DNA from: Sphingomonas metalli
GTDB lineage: Bacteria > Pseudomonadota > Alphaproteobacteria > Sphingomonadales > Sphingomonadaceae
DNA: 64,000 nucleotides
Reading direction: 5' to 3'
NCBI RefSeq assembly: GCF_014641735.1
Contig: NZ_BMIH01000004.1
Location: 248,001 to 312,000, forward strand
The position numbers and the translations under genes are program-made. The notes under the pieces were generated by a model. That model saw only the letters and a list, made by a program, of their open reading frames with translations. It was not told the origin of the DNA and did not search any database. The first letter of the stretch is position 1; every line of letters starts with the position of its first letter. This document shows positions 59,700-64,000 of this stretch, one piece after another.

Positions 59700-59790
59700 G
59701 GAGCGGTGGCCGAGTGGTCGAAGGCGCTCGCCTGGAAAGTGAGTATACGGCAAAACCGTATCGAGGGTTCGAATCCCTCCCGCTCCGCCA
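59700..59790 (+). tRNA. tRNA-Ser(GGA)
   Basis: The 91-nt sequence has acceptor GGAGCGG / CCGCTCC, anticodon loop CTGGAAA (anticodon GGA), a long variable arm typical of serine tRNAs (GTATACGGC AAAA CCGTATC region), T arm with GGTTCGAATCC, discriminator G and encoded CCA. An integrase gene starts 168 bases downstream, making this the probable attachment site of an integrated element. Confidence 0.97.
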
Positions 59791-59957
59791 CTTGATCGTT
59801 CCAGGCTGTCGCACACCTTCTCATTGATCGTCTCAAGTGTCTCAACTTAGGCGAAATTCAGAAGATTGAGTTTCTTGTTGTCGCATCGCAGCGCATCCAA
59901 GCTCACCTGAATTGGGGGCATTGCGTGGGCACCGGACCTCTGCATAGTGGGGGCATC

Positions 59958-61274
59958 ATGCTCACAGATCCCCAGGTCCGGAAGGCGGTAGCCAGAGACC
60001 GCGACTACAAGCTGCCCGATTCCGGCGGGCTGCACCTCTACGTCACCAAGACGGGGCACCGGTCGTGGCGGTTCAAATACCGCTTCGGCGGCAAGGAGCG
60101 CCGCCTCGTCTTCGGGAGCTATCCCGACGTCACGCTCAAGCGCGCGCGCGAGCTGCGCGACGACGCGAAGCGGGCGCTCCGCGACGGGTTGGACCCAGGT
60201 CTTGAGTCGAAGCGGGCCCGCCTCTCGCGGCAGAAGGGACACACCAACACCTTCGAGCAATTCGCGCGCGACTGGCATGCCACGCAGGTGCCCCGCTGGA
60301 AGGATGTGCACGCGGACGACGTGATCACCTCCATGGAGCGCGACCTGTTCAAGGAGATCGGCGGCTATCCTGTCGACCAGATCGACGAGGCCTTGCTGCT
60401 GCACGCGCTGCGCAAGGTCGAGGCCCGCGGCGCGATCGAGACCGCGCATCGCCTGCGCCAGCGGGCGGAGCGGGTGTTCAAGTTTGCGTCGGGGGAAGGC
60501 GTCAAAAACTCGAACCCCGCCGTCAACGTCAAGGAGTCCATGAAGTCTGTCCCGCCGAAGAAGCGGCGTCCAGCGCTCGTCGACGTGAAGCAGATCCGTG
60601 CCCTGATCCGGGCCAGCGACCGCGCCGCCGCCTCGCCCGTGACGCGGTTGTCGTCGCGCTTCCTCGCCCTCACGGCGCAGCGGCCGGGCATGGTCCGGAA
60701 CTCGGTGTGGAACGAGATCACGGGGATCGACTGGTCGGACCCCGGCAAGCCGTCACCCGAGGCGAAGTGGACGATCCCGGCCGACAAGATGAAGCAGGAA
60801 CTCGATTTGCGCGAGGACGAGGCCTTCGAGCACGAGGTGCCGCTCGCCGAAGCGGCCGTCGAGGTCCTGCGCGTCGTCCGCCGGTTCACGGGAGGTCGGG
60901 GATACATCTTCCCCGGTGGAAGGGAATCCTCGGTTCCGCTTTCGGAGAACGCGGTCGGTTACCTCTACAACCGCGAGGGATACAAGGGCCGGCACGTGCC
61001 GCACGGGTGGCGCAGCTCGTTCAGCACCGTGATGAACAGCCGCATGGAGCGGCTCTTCCCGGGCGCCGAGAAGCTGCTGGTCGACAGGCTGGTGATCGAC
61101 CTGATGCTGGCGCACACCCCCGCGGGCATGTCGGCTACCGAGCTGATCTACAACCGAGCCGCGTATCCGGAGCGCCGCCGTGAGCTCGCGGAGGACTGGG
61201 CCTCGCTGATCCTGGAAGGTGCCGACCCGGTGGCGAGCTTGCTGGAGGGACGGCGTCGGCGCGTCGAGCGCTAG
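59958..61274 (+). CDS. P4-type tyrosine recombinase/integrase (tRNA-Ser associated)
   Basis: The 438-residue protein has the N-terminal arm-binding DUF4102-type domain (LPDSGGLHLYVTKTGHRSWR, YRFGGKERRLVFGSYPDVTL, KRARELRDDAKRALRDGLDP), a central SAM-like domain and a C-terminal catalytic domain with Arg in LTAQRPGMVRNSVWNE, the HGWRSSFSTVMN box and a Tyr in the LIYNRAAYPERR segment. Integrases of this class insert elements at the 3' end of tRNA genes. ATG 59958 (MLTDPQVRKAV) is preferred to the upstream ATG. It lies directly downstream of tRNA-Ser(GGA), on the same strand. Confidence 0.92.
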   Translation: MLTDPQVRKAVARDRDYKLPDSGGLHLYVTKTGHRSWRFKYRFGGKERRLVFGSYPDVTLKRARELRDDAKRALRDGLDPGLESKRARLSRQKGHTNTFEQFARDWHATQVPRWKDVHADDVITSMERDLFKEIGGYPVDQIDEALLLHALRKVEARGAIETAHRLRQRAERVFKFASGEGVKNSNPAVNVKESMKSVPPKKRRPALVDVKQIRALIRASDRAAASPVTRLSSRFLALTAQRPGMVRNSVWNEITGIDWSDPGKPSPEAKWTIPADKMKQELDLREDEAFEHEVPLAEAAVEVLRVVRRFTGGRGYIFPGGRESSVPLSENAVGYLYNREGYKGRHVPHGWRSSFSTVMNSRMERLFPGAEKLLVDRLVIDLMLAHTPAGMSATELIYNRAAYPERRRELAEDWASLILEGADPVASLLEGRRRRVER

Positions 61275-61302
61275 ATTCGGCGCGGGGTCTCCGTCACCAC
61301 GC

Positions 61303-61974
61303 TCAGCGAGGGTTCGCGATCCAGTCCGCGACCTCGCTCTCGCGCCAGACCGAGACGTTGCCGTCCATCGGCACCTTGCCGGGAAAGCGGCCGCTCTCGA
61401 TCCGCCGGTAGATGGTCGCCCGGGAAAGGCCGGTCATGGTTTGCAGCTCTGGCATGCGGACATATCGGTCCGACTGCCGCCCGGCCTGTCCGAAACTTCC
61501 CTCCGGCCCTTCCCGCACGGGAGGAGCGGCACCATCGGCTGGCTGATCCGTGGTTGCCTCCGAGCGGATGAGCCGCTCCAGGCCGCTCCTGTCGACGAAG
61601 ATCCAGTGGGTCGGGACTGCGCCTGGCTCGAATGGTCTCGACGGGTCGATGGCGCTCGACGCGAACCGTTGCTCGAAGTCGTCGATCTCCCATGCGGTTG
61701 GTGGCAACGGCGACGGGACGCTACCGCCGAACGCTCGGACATGTGTGGCGACATCCCCGGCCGCGCAGGCTTCGCCCAGCATGCGGGCGGCGCCGAGTAT
61801 CTGCGAGCGCGCGGGCTCGTCCACGAAGATGGTTCCATCCTCGTCGAAGGTCAGGGCGACGCGGTCAAGCGCATGCCCGTGACGCTGCAGGCACATTCGC
61901 GCCAAGGCGCCGATCAGCAGGACGCGTCCGGGCGACGTCGGCATCTCCCGCCGCCAATAGTCTTCCTGCTCCAT
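61303..61974 (-). CDS. AlpA-type regulator / excisionase-like protein with N-terminal extension
   Basis: The C-terminal 55 residues are an AlpA-like winged helix: RYVRMPELQTMTGLSRATIY, RRIESGRFPGKVPMDGNVSV and WRESEVADWI, typical of regulators of integrases in P4-type elements. The N-terminal 165 residues are unusual for AlpA (normally 60-70 residues) and not recognised; they contain VALTFDEDGTIFVDEPARSQ and THWIFVDRSGLERLIRSEA. ATG 61972-61974 follows AAGG at a suitable distance; an ATG five codons upstream is also possible, but a TATAAT box at 61998-62003 would then give a nearly leaderless mRNA. It faces the integrase gene. Confidence 0.75.
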   Translation of the reverse strand: MEQEDYWRREMPTSPGRVLLIGALARMCLQRHGHALDRVALTFDEDGTIFVDEPARSQILGAARMLGEACAAGDVATHVRAFGGSVPSPLPPTAWEIDDFEQRFASSAIDPSRPFEPGAVPTHWIFVDRSGLERLIRSEATTDQPADGAAPPVREGPEGSFGQAGRQSDRYVRMPELQTMTGLSRATIYRRIESGRFPGKVPMDGNVSVWRESEVADWIANPR

Positions 61975-61989
61975 CAGACCTTGGTTCAT

Positions 61990-62464
61990 GCCACTCTATT
62001 ATAGGACGATGTCTAATATTGCGGAAACGGCGATCCTGCGGACATCGCGAGTGAGCGGATCACGGCTGTGTGAGCCTCGGACACCACGCGATCGCAGGCG
62101 AAAATTACGCCCGCACTTAATGATCGGGTCGGTCGGGTGATCCGCTGGAGCCCCCGCCGCCAGCCGGCACCGCCGCGCCTTCGACCCTACTACCCGGCGC
62201 GTCGGAAGCCCCGCCTGCTTCGGTGCCATACCGCCTGCTAGAGGCGGACATCGAACTCATGACGCGAGACGCTCGCTGGCAAGGATTGCCGGCGATCCGG
62301 GTCTATTACCGCCAATATTCGTGAAATATACCCGGCTGAGACGGTCGCCGTCCGTCAGTAGAGGAATCGAGATCGCCCGTGTGGGCGCAATGATATGGTC
62401 CGGTTCATCTCCCGTCCGTAGTCGGTGAAATCCGCGTCCTCGAAGACGATCGCGGGCTCCTGGG
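61990..62464. other. Gap in the integrated element with a promoter but no recognised gene
   Basis: Near its left end, on the minus strand, TTCCGC (62021-62026), a 17-base spacer and TATAAT (61998-62003) look like the promoter of the AlpA-type gene, with the imperfect inverted repeat TAGGAC-GAT-GTCTAA overlapping it. The rest has no convincing reading frame; frames there are broken or compositionally poor. It may hold a decayed gene. Confidence 0.4.
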
Positions 62465-62843
62465 TCAGCGCGCAAGGCGCGCCTCGATCTCGGTCAGCGA
62501 CATCTCGGCCCTGGTCGCGGCCCCGATCTTCCCCAGCGCGTTGCTCCGCGTCTCGACGAGCGCGTTGTGGGCTAGCCCGTGGTTCTCGGGCCGGAGCCGC
62601 TCGACCGTCTGCCTCAAGTGGGCCTTCAGCCGCTCGCTCGTCGATCACGATGAGGTGATCGAGGCCCTGGCCATCGTCGTTTTCGGCGAGAGAGCGGAAG
62701 AGATCGGATAGCGCCTGCAGGCGCAAGTCGATCGTCGCGCGGATCGGGATGCCGCACTGTTCGGCCAGCAGGACCATGACGTCGGCGGCGCTCCAAGCGT
62801 GCACGTTCATGTCGTCGGGCAGTGGCTTGCGGATGTAGCCCAT
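62465..62843 (-). pseudogene. Frameshifted gene of the integrated element
   Basis: Starting at ATG 62841-62843 the frame encodes a plausible N-terminus (MGYIRKPLPDDMNVHAWSAA, then DVMVLLAEQCGIPIRATIDL and LRLQALSDLFRSLAENDDGQ) until about 62640 (LDHLIVIDE). There the protein-like sequence continues in the next frame (ERLKAHLRQTVERLRPENHG, then LAHNALVETRSNALGKIG) and ends TGA at 62465-62467. The original frame past that point becomes Arg/Gly/Asp-rich shadow. One extra base in CGACGAGCGAGCGG would explain it: a decayed gene, a sequencing error, or a +1 shift. The protein family is not recognised. Confidence 0.5.
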
Positions 62844-62906
62844 GTGGCTTCTCCGATTAGGCGCGGGTGGCCGTGGCGCCGGGCCGCGGGGCGGCCCGGC
62901 GCTCGG

Positions 62907-63428
62907 TCAGGCGGCCTTGGCGAGTTGCGGGAGGGCGAAGACGTCACCGCGCGCGAGCTGCTCCTGCTCGAGCTGGAGCAGCCGCCGGTAGGCCCGGACG
63001 ATGCCGGTCCGGCCGGCCTGGAGGCTGCGCGCCGGCGCAGTGGGCAGGTGGTTCAGCCGCAGGTCGGCATCGAACTCGAACGCGCCCATCTTGAAGTTGT
63101 CCGGGACGAGGCGGGTGGTCCGGCCGTTCGGCGTCGACCAGAGCATGCAGTTCTCGATCGTGTAGACCTGGTCGCCGGCCGGGGCGACCAGCCCGATCAG
63201 CGGCACCTGGGGTGCCTCCTCCGTGTGGTGGATCCAGATGACCGGACGTCCGGTCGCGCGAACGCTGCCGGTGAACTGCAAGAGCTGCAGCGCGTGCGGC
63301 TCGTTGCCGCTGAGGATCAGCTCGACCTTCTCGATGAACTCCTGGTGGCGGCCGGGCGCGCCACCGAGGAGGTGGGCGACGGCGCCCATGTAGTTGGCGG
63401 CGAGCTGCTGGTCGCTGGGCTTGGTCAT
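62907..63428 (-). CDS. Hypothetical protein of the integrated element
   Basis: From ATG 63426-63428, behind AGGAAGGA, a 173-residue protein begins MTKPSDQQLAANYMGAVAHL. The middle has strand-like segments (VELILSGNEPHALQLLQFTG, PVIWIHHTEEAPQVPLIGLV, YTIENCMLWSTPNGRTTRLV) and the C-terminal part is helical and charged (TGIVRAYRRLLQLEQEQLAR). It has no signal peptide or membrane span. I do not recognise the family; position suggests an accessory gene of the tRNA-Ser-linked element. The longer open frame upstream to 63797 has no ribosome-binding site and looks non-coding. Confidence 0.6.
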   Translation of the reverse strand: MTKPSDQQLAANYMGAVAHLLGGAPGRHQEFIEKVELILSGNEPHALQLLQFTGSVRATGRPVIWIHHTEEAPQVPLIGLVAPAGDQVYTIENCMLWSTPNGRTTRLVPDNFKMGAFEFDADLRLNHLPTAPARSLQAGRTGIVRAYRRLLQLEQEQLARGDVFALPQLAKAA

Positions 63429-63908
63429 GTCGTGTCCTTCCTGTTCGAGGTTTTTTCCCCACGCTCTGCGGGGCACTTCACTGGTTGGAAAACGGGAAGT
63501 CCCGGGCGGCGCTGACGCGCGCCGTGCCGCCCCGGGCGGCGACCGCCCGAAGTTGGATTCCGTTCTTCTGACCCGAATGGTTGAGGAAAAATCCGCCAAC
63601 GCGCTGGGCGCGCGTTGAGGGATAATTAGCTTTTGAGCCCGTAGGCTCCGCCGGGGCGATGCCCGAGCTGCATACCTTTTCCCCTCTACCACCTGGATCG
63701 ACTGGCAAGTCGCTGTAGGGAGCGGGCCTGCGGACCCGCTGCGGCCCGCAGGCTGCCGTGCCCGTGTCCATCCGGCGCTCCGTGATTTCCAAGACACGCC
63801 ACTGGGCCACGCGCTATCGAAGTGCGCGCGCGTGCCTTGTCGCCCTCCGGCCGGACCACGCTAGGCTATTAGCGCAGAGCTGCTCCACAGCGGGCGCTGC
63901 TCGGAACA
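63429..63908. other. Non-coding stretch in the integrated element
   Basis: About 480 bases without a convincing gene. It holds several GC-rich hairpins (for example around CCCGGGCGGCG...GCCGCCCCGGGC near 63500-63535 and GACCCGCTGCGGCCCGCAGG near 63732-63752) that may belong to a regulatory or untranslated RNA. No tRNA-like or repeat-family structure is visible. Confidence 0.35.
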
Positions 63909-63924
63909 TATGCACATGTGCATA
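63909..63924. promoter_or_regulatory. 16-bp perfect palindrome upstream of a partial gene
   Basis: TATGCACATGTGCATA is a perfect inverted repeat without spacer, 12 bases before the ATG at 63936. Its position and AT-rich flanks (AGTTATT) fit an operator or promoter of the following gene. Confidence 0.4.
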
Positions 63925-63935
63925 GTTATTCGGTC

Positions 63936-64000
63936 ATGCGTAATGACTTCAATCAAGGTCCCCAGCGCGTGGTCGTGCCCGTCGGGCTGGACGGGCTGAT
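63936..64000 (+). CDS. Start of a gene running off the right edge (partial)
   Basis: ATG 63936 opens a frame to the end of the window, encoding MRNDFNQGPQRVVVPVGLDG and continuing. The sequence has no stop codon in 21 codons and follows a 16-bp palindrome and AT-rich sequence. A second ATG in another frame (63943) begins MTSIKVPSAWS and could instead be the true start. Identification is not possible from so few residues. Confidence 0.35.
   Translation, partial: MRNDFNQGPQRVVVPVGLDGL

What the first reader, a model, noticed from the sequence alone, without database searches (positions are those of the whole stretch)
59700..64000. Left end of an element integrated at tRNA-Ser(GGA)
A complete tRNA-Ser is followed by a P4-type integrase, an AlpA-type regulator facing it, and unfamiliar genes with different codon use, GC-rich non-coding stretches and a frameshifted gene. 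The attachment site should be the tRNA 3' end, with its repeat beyond the right edge of the window.
Basis: partly seen in the sequence, partly recalled or inferred. Interest (0 to 1): 0.5.

Follow-up and report, generated by a model that had tools for sequence, protein, structure and literature searches.

The report
Foreign gene island at tRNA-Ser
This is the left end of a large foreign DNA block, carrying several genes of the kind that protect bacteria from viruses, that inserted itself at the end of a serine tRNA gene; that is a well-known way for such blocks to move, though some of the cargo is little studied.

Summary
An intact tRNA-Ser(GGA) (59700-59790) is followed by a P4-type tyrosine integrase and a convergent AlpA-type gene. 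The predicted second copy of the tRNA end exists: 31 exact bases (59764-59794) recur once in the genome, on contig C7 (38026-38056, minus). Of 60 other same-genus genomes one has two exact copies of the 26-base core. Of 79 loci with related integrases, 69 have a tRNA or tmRNA end just upstream. The left flank is kept, the right flank differs in the relatives read, and codon use changes at the tRNA. Foreign DNA runs 54.5 kb past the tRNA to a repeat, probably an insertion sequence, at the contig end. Cargo includes Gabija, a kinase-DUF4011-helicase-nuclease cassette shared with two other genera, and an Hsp70/AAA/helicase cluster; no conjugation genes in 36 of 42 genes scanned. On C7 the repeat adjoins a truncated second integrase, suggesting tandem islands. 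The C4-C7 link is inferred, and the contig-end evidence does not confirm it. Non-coding stretches are not GC-rich; the frameshift is likely but unproved. A new member of a known kind.

The parts
59700..59790 (+). tRNA-Ser(GGA), intact; integration target
   Evidence: ARAGORN
59764..59794 (+). attachment core (attL): last 27 bases of the tRNA plus 4; exact copy at C7:38026-38056 (-)
59958..61274 (+). P4-type tyrosine integrase, 438 aa (an upstream GTG at 59925 is also open)
   Evidence: Pfam; relatives; conserved residues
61303..61989 (-). AlpA-type regulator (probable excisionase/directionality factor) with a long N-terminal part, 228 aa, convergent with the integrase
   Evidence: PF05930 5.5e-14; phrog_2790 excisionase and transcriptional regulator 4.5e-13; homologue over nearly the full length and facing the integrase in L038
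62465..62843 (-). probable frameshifted gene, two reading-frame pieces meeting near 62640
   Evidence: frame translations, frame scores; no homologue found
62907..63428 (-). 173-aa protein without a known domain; matches in 8 of 150 other same-genus genomes at E <= 0.001, three of the 8 weak
63918..64000 (+). start of a called 206-aa gene without a known domain (runs to 64538 in window numbering)

Best explanation
A genomic island, non-conjugative as far as seen and rich in genes of antiviral-defence type, integrated into the 3' end of tRNA-Ser(GGA) by its own P4-type tyrosine integrase. The integrase recombined a copy of the last 27 tRNA bases (plus CTTG) carried on the circular island with the chromosomal tRNA gene, so that the island restored an intact tRNA at its left end and left the displaced 31-base fragment at its right end. 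The convergent AlpA-type protein most likely acts as directionality factor for excision. The right end is most likely the copy on contig C7, so the island comprises the 54.5 kb of C4 beyond the tRNA, an insertion sequence, and about 3.5 kb of C7; it lies in tandem with a second, older island whose integrase has lost its catalytic end. Shown: target, repeat, integrase, AlpA, foreign composition, gene content. Inferred: the order C4 to C7, that the contig-end repeat is an insertion sequence, activity of the integrase, role of AlpA, function of the cargo.
For: tRNA intact. 31-base exact repeat elsewhere in the genome; with up to 3 mismatches the 26-base core has five sites: two exact, three with 2 mismatches; of 60 other same-genus genomes 53 have one exact copy, 6 none, 1 two (diverged copies would be missed). 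69 of 79 loci with a relative of the integrase have a same-strand tRNA or tmRNA ending within 500 bases upstream of the match, 7 of them tRNA-Ser(GGA) (the 79 are the best of 107 confirmed relatives). Catalytic residues present. An AlpA relative lies downstream of the integrase on the other strand in 7 of 13 loci read, directly after it in 4: L032, L037, L038, L039. Codon use and third-position GC change at the tRNA. Left flank kept, right flank different in the relatives read. Cargo: GajA 1.8e-222 and GajB 8.4e-129, adjacent; the E18-E23 stretch is 81% identical in DNA over 11.8 kb in another genus.
Against: C4 and C7 are separate contigs. Five contig ends carry one end of a repeat and five the other; the target duplications at C4 end and C7 end do not match, and C4 end shares CCCGGG with C1 end instead, so the join is not proved and would need a deletion or rearrangement. 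The cut genes at C4 end and C7 end run towards each other and do not complete one another. The core copies are direct repeats in only one of two orientations of C7. The genome of S. corticis (L038), whose integrase at tRNA-Ser(GGA) is 75% identical, has no second exact core. No clean empty site was found. No transfer genes were seen, so how it moves between cells is unknown.
Confidence: 0.85

Rival explanations
1. The C7 copy is not the right end of this island: C7 (same repeat end on both sides) was moved or inverted by recombination or transposition involving the repeat, and the true right end of the tRNA-Ser island is lost or lies elsewhere.
For: C7 carries the same repeat end at both ends; C4 end and C1 end share the flank CCCGGG, as if C7 or C6 lay between them as a composite block; C7 end TATATC, C7 start CCCTCA, C6 start TGAGCG and C1 start TCGCGG have no partner. 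C1 start, another possible neighbour of C7 end, is an SspH-like gene cut by the same repeat.
Against: A 31-base exact tRNA-Ser(GGA) end beside an integrase related to those found at that tRNA in two relatives (L029, L015) is most simply explained by origin at this tRNA.
Confidence: 0.25
2. One large composite island: the 31-base copy on C7 is an internal remnant, and C4 and C7 form a single element bounded by a further, degraded copy.
For: The 28 scored C7 genes have backbone-codon scores of -0.15 to 0.45, all below the backbone mean of 0.57, and C7:1-38025 is 66% GC; its integrase is truncated.
Against: No further copy of the core with up to 3 mismatches except three sites with 2 mismatches that are probably other tRNA-Ser genes (not checked with ARAGORN); the genes of C7 beyond the repeat look metabolic by eye, unlike the C4 cargo.
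Confidence: 0.15
3. An integrative conjugative element or prophage whose transfer genes lie in the unread part.
For: Integrase plus AlpA also occur in such elements (established knowledge); a stretch of unknown length may be missing at the repeat.
Against: No relaxase, type IV secretion, capsid or terminase domain in the 36 of 42 C4 genes scanned with Pfam, nor in the two called C7 genes left of the repeat. PHROGs were run on four window proteins only.
Confidence: 0.1

Closest known systems
tRNA-borne genomic islands as mapped by Islander (PMC4383910: abstract and passages seen)
   Same: Intact tRNA at one end, displaced 3' fragment, tyrosine integrase; tandem arrays with one integrase and one fragment each are described there (its Table 1 lists 125 tandems of two or more)
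   Different: Here the fragment lies on another contig of a draft genome, and the second integrase is truncated
Vibrio pathogenicity island 2 (PMC3014918: passages seen)
   Same: 57 kb island at a tRNA-serine, tyrosine integrase, direct repeats attL and attR, an AlpA-like directionality factor (VefA, 37% identical to AlpA) essential for excision
   Different: The AlpA-like genes lie in the middle and at the far end of VPI-2; the cargo there is sialic acid use, here of defence type
Core defence hotspots of Pseudomonas aeruginosa (PMC10250203: passages seen)
   Same: Defence genes piling up beside a tRNA; a large DUF4011 gene with a radical SAM gene
   Different: There DUF4011 marks the conserved flank; here it is mobile cargo, fused to a kinase domain and next to an AAA gene
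Gabija (GajAB)
   Same: Adjacent GajA and GajB, strong PADLOC matches
   Different: No difference looked for
Hhe / ProA-type DUF4011 helicase-nuclease proteins (NCBIfam, PADLOC PDC-S37)
   Same: DUF4011, two helicase halves and an MTES_1575 nuclease domain
   Different: N-terminal protein kinase domain; scores far below the curated cut-offs for Hhe (346 of 2000) and ProA (504 of 1500)

Membership tests
tRNA-integrated genomic island | intact tRNA at one end | tested here: met
tRNA-integrated genomic island | tyrosine integrase beside the tRNA | tested here: met
tRNA-integrated genomic island | displaced 3' tRNA fragment elsewhere in the genome | tested here: met
   31 exact bases on C7
tRNA-integrated genomic island | fragment in direct orientation on the same replicon, within island range | tested here: inconclusive
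   contig break at a repeat
tRNA-integrated genomic island | empty site in relatives | tested here: inconclusive
   no common right flank found among the relatives read, so no clean empty site
P4-type integrase family | Arm-DNA-bind_3 and Phage_int_M domains, catalytic residues R-K-H-R-H-Y (recalled) | tested here: met
   the catalytic-domain model Phage_integrase did not match at E 0.001; NCBIfam integrase model PRK09692 2.5e-55, below its cut-off
AlpA directionality factor | AlpA DNA-binding domain | tested here: met
AlpA directionality factor | promotes excision | not testable with these tools
   needs an experiment
Integrative conjugative element | relaxase and type IV secretion genes | tested here: not met
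   none in 36 of 42 C4 genes scanned; an unread gap remains
Tandem tRNA island array | each member has its own integrase and tRNA fragment | tested here: inconclusive
   second integrase truncated before its catalytic end, and no third fragment found
Gabija | adjacent gajA and gajB | tested here: met

The most novel reading that the evidence does not exclude
The island carries two little-studied multi-gene defence systems that travel as units. One is a six-gene cassette (E18-E23, C4:325710-337465): a 316-aa protein, a thermonuclease-like protein (named by eye), a 432-aa protein, a 2030-aa protein kinase-DUF4011-helicase-nuclease fusion, an NrdG-like iron-sulphur protein and an AAA protein; the same order is found in two other genera, in one of them with only the first 36 residues of E18. 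The other is a chaperone-based cluster (E32-E38: helicase, 273-aa and 527-aa proteins, a probable membrane protein, an AAA protein with an IetA match, Hsp70, 116-aa protein), of which E34-E38 recur in one other genus. If they defend against phages, a kinase-gated helicase-nuclease or an Hsp70-driven system would be a new variant of antiviral immunity.
Probability: 0.35. Interest if true: 0.6.

Novelty: new member of a known kind. Interest (0 to 1): 0.3.

Why it matters
It marks tRNA-Ser(GGA) as a variable landing site in Sphingomonas with a well-defined attachment core, and points to an island whose least-studied cassettes can be tested directly for phage resistance in laboratory strains.

Tried and rejected
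GC-rich non-coding stretches as a sign of the element: rejected. Finding the chromosomal right flank through relatives: 8 to 60 kb to the right of the tRNA in nine relatives showed few shared genes (two adjacent pairs between relatives, G021 with G033 and G021 with G034, one more single pair, the integrase in G033, and scattered relatives of C7 genes, the best 66-69% identical for F23 in G010 and F10 in G016), and no common order; 20 kb from G029, the best match, gave one stretch of about 730 bases at 67% and two of about 30 bases in the own genome. So no right flank could be named. Joining contigs by target duplications of the repeat: fitted C4 start with C2 end and C3 start with C6 end, not C4 end or C7 end. 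Joining by a gene cut in two: no matching halves seen. Joining through a relative of the cut gene E42: one relative in 395 other genomes of the order (G288), without the C7 genes F27-F29 in the 20 kb read around it. Homologues of the frameshifted gene: none. A shorter right repeat of the second island on C7: no match of 12 bases or more on C7 besides the known copy. Plasmid relatives: none for E04 or E08, only the AlpA domain for E02 (7 records), and 14 records for F29 at 26-38% identity. That E06-E08 resemble the Tn554 trio tnpC, tnpB, tnpA rests on recalled sizes and order and on a weak integrase match of E07 (0.0051, below cut-off); a paper search (listing only) was not followed up and the resemblance is not claimed. 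Paper searches 56, 72 and 74 served for background; of their listings I read passages of PMC8092258 and PMC3014918.
Full report
Where it lies. The window is contig C4:248001-312000 of an unnamed 3.86 Mb draft genome in 21 contigs. The genus is Sphingomonas by inference: the nearest integrase loci include named Sphingomonas, and the same-genus genome G062 has the core at the same contig place as G087, the genome of locus L033, S. yantingensis.

The observation. ARAGORN gives a complete tRNA-Ser(GGA) at 59700-59790. Downstream lie the integrase 59958-61274 (+) and, 28 bases after it on the other strand, the AlpA-type gene 61303-61989 (PHROGs name its family excisionase and transcriptional regulator). 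In an alignment of the integrase with ten relatives and the C7 integrase, R242 is invariant, K279 is replaced in L068 only, and H349, R352, H386 and Y398 are missing in the C7 integrase only; that these form the catalytic set is recalled knowledge. Pfam's catalytic-domain model did not match this integrase. Its relatives among solved structures are separate domains of integrases, two of them called CP4-like and CPS-53. The AlpA protein has a long N-terminal part, shared by homologues in L033 and L038. Codon use and third-position GC change behind the tRNA (51 genes before it, 41 after it); the codon score favours the first group by construction, the GC measure does not. The non-coding stretches are not GC-rich. 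The frameshifted gene is likely, from coding-like frames meeting near 62640, but no homologue was found to prove it.

The attachment site. A 31-base exact copy of 59764-59794, that is the last 27 bases of the tRNA and CTTG, lies at C7:38026-38056 on the minus strand. With up to 3 mismatches the 26-base core has five sites in the genome: these two, and three with 2 mismatches. Among 60 other genomes of the genus the exact core occurs once in 53, not at all in 6 and twice in one, G067. A second exact copy is therefore rare; diverged copies in relatives would have been missed. The integrase family is a tRNA user: of 79 loci found with it in named records (the best of 107 confirmed relatives), 69 have a same-strand tRNA or tmRNA ending within 500 bases upstream, 7 being tRNA-Ser(GGA) and 5 tRNA-Ser(GCT). 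Ten have none; in three of these (L055, L079, L092) the match begins within 350 bases of the locus start, and L034 has a tRNA-Ser 935 bases upstream.

Relatives. For the 19 best of 36 same-genus relatives the tRNA lies behind the same left-hand gene, 19 of 19. The 0.6-1.5 kb to its right differ from the own genome except for integrases: 3 of the 19 have a relative of the integrase there (L026 42% identical; L029 and L015 match the C7 integrase better). Some relatives resemble each other there (L015 with L029; L013, L020, L023 and L024 in part). Over 8-60 kb to the right in nine relatives few genes are shared and no common order was seen, and 20 kb from G029 gave only three short matches in the own genome. 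The tRNA marks a boundary between conserved and variable DNA. A clean empty site was not found.

Extent and right end. C4 continues 54.5 kb past the tRNA and ends in a repeat. Ten contig ends carry one or other end of it: A at C4 end, C1 end, C1 start, C4 start, C3 start; B at C7 end, C7 start, C6 start, C6 end, C2 end. I read it as an insertion sequence in five copies, because its ends are similar inverted sequences and because six-base duplications pair C4 start with C2 end (TTGAGC) and C3 start with C6 end (AAGCTT); its inside, with any transposase, was not seen. C4 end and C1 end both show CCCGGG; C1 start, C7 end, C6 start and C7 start have no partner. The join of C4 end to C7 end, which would make the two core copies direct repeats, is the simplest reading but not proved. 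Against it, the two genes cut there (E42 and the nSTAND3 gene F29) run towards each other and do not complete one another. On the far side of the C7 core lies a second integrase, F27. It is 70% identical over 315 residues to the one at the tRNA in L029 but ends before the H, R, H and Y positions. So a second, decayed island probably lies in tandem. The 28 scored genes of C7 have codon scores of -0.15 to 0.45, below the backbone mean.

Cargo. Of 42 called genes behind the tRNA on C4, 36 were scanned with Pfam (E03, E12, E19, E31, E35 and E39 were not), and 17 with PADLOC, of which 10 had a match, several only through common ATPase or helicase domains. No conjugation, capsid or terminase domain was seen. 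Clear findings: adjacent GajA and GajB (1.8e-222 and 8.4e-129); a TM0106-type RecB-like nuclease; a 2030-aa protein with kinase, DUF4011, helicase and MTES_1575 nuclease domains (PADLOC PDC-S37 3.6e-146; NCBIfam ProA 504 bits against a cut-off of 1500); beside it an NrdG-like protein (below the NrdG cut-off) and an AAA protein (AAA_2 7.9e-45, PDC-M37B 1.2e-27); a metallophosphoesterase followed by an SMC-like ATPase; a methyltransferase with a weak HNH match; an HNH protein; a weak PLD-like match; and a cluster with Hsp70 (no PADLOC match), an AAA protein (IetA 4.1e-22) and a helicase. E18 to E23 recur in order in G445 (DNA 81% identical over 11.8 kb, but only the first 36 residues of E18) and in G372, both of other genera; of 395 other genomes of the order 3 have a relative of E23 at E <= 1e-80, the third (G464, 39% identical) without the rest of the cassette in the 20 kb read. 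E34 to E38 recur in G254; of 395 other genomes 2 match E34, the second (G305) with only E34 and E37 relatives nearby. A transposase of the IS1595 kind lies near the C4 end.

Mechanism and comparison. Integration into the tRNA 3' end by the island's integrase, with restoration of the tRNA, is the established route for such islands (Islander paper PMC4383910, abstract and passages). In VPI-2 of Vibrio an AlpA-like factor is essential for excision from a tRNA-serine site (PMC3014918, passages). That the AlpA gene here does the same is inference. The cargo recalls the defence hotspots of P. [quoted passage not shown] A paper search for Sphingomonas islands at tRNA-Ser showed no title on this site among the 15 listed of 96 (listing only). 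Searches for DUF4011 with helicase and defence, and for kinase, radical SAM and related words, found one paper each; I read passages of the first and saw only the listing of the second. The library lacks most subscription journals, so this is no proof that the cassette is undescribed.

Verdict. It is a new member of a known kind. Its special points are the probable tandem with a decayed island and cassettes that may be new defence systems.

Noticed in passing
C4:325710-337465 (L005/L006), window numbering 77710-89465: Six-gene cassette with a protein kinase-DUF4011-helicase-nuclease fusion, an NrdG-like and an AAA gene, found in order in two other genera (in one with only the start of E18).
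   Followed up: partly
C4:349693-359733 (L007): Cluster of Hsp70, AAA (IetA match), probable membrane protein, proteins without domains and a helicase; E34-E38 recur in G254.
   Followed up: partly
C7:36809-37882 (L008): Second integrase beside the repeated tRNA end, truncated before its catalytic C-terminal residues.
   Followed up: yes
ends of C1, C2, C3, C4, C6, C7 (L144-L153): Ten contig ends carry one or other end of a repeat, read as five copies of an insertion sequence (ends TGTCAACGGCGG and TGTGTAGGGCGG, 6-base target duplications in two pairs); C4 end and C1 end share CCCGGG.
   Followed up: partly
C1:1-6692 (L226): Three genes ending in an SspH-like protein (PADLOC SspH 2e-193) lie behind a tRNA-Arg and are cut by the same repeat: perhaps a second tRNA-linked defence locus.
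   Followed up: partly
C4:312990-317301 (L005): Three same-strand genes of 149, 666 and 474 aa whose sizes and order recall the Tn554 transposition trio (recalled); only a weak integrase match for one.
   Followed up: partly
L013, L020, L023, L024: In four relatives the DNA right of the tRNA-Ser carries related ORFs of ParB/DNA-methylase appearance (named by eye), so another kind of element may use the same site.
   Followed up: no
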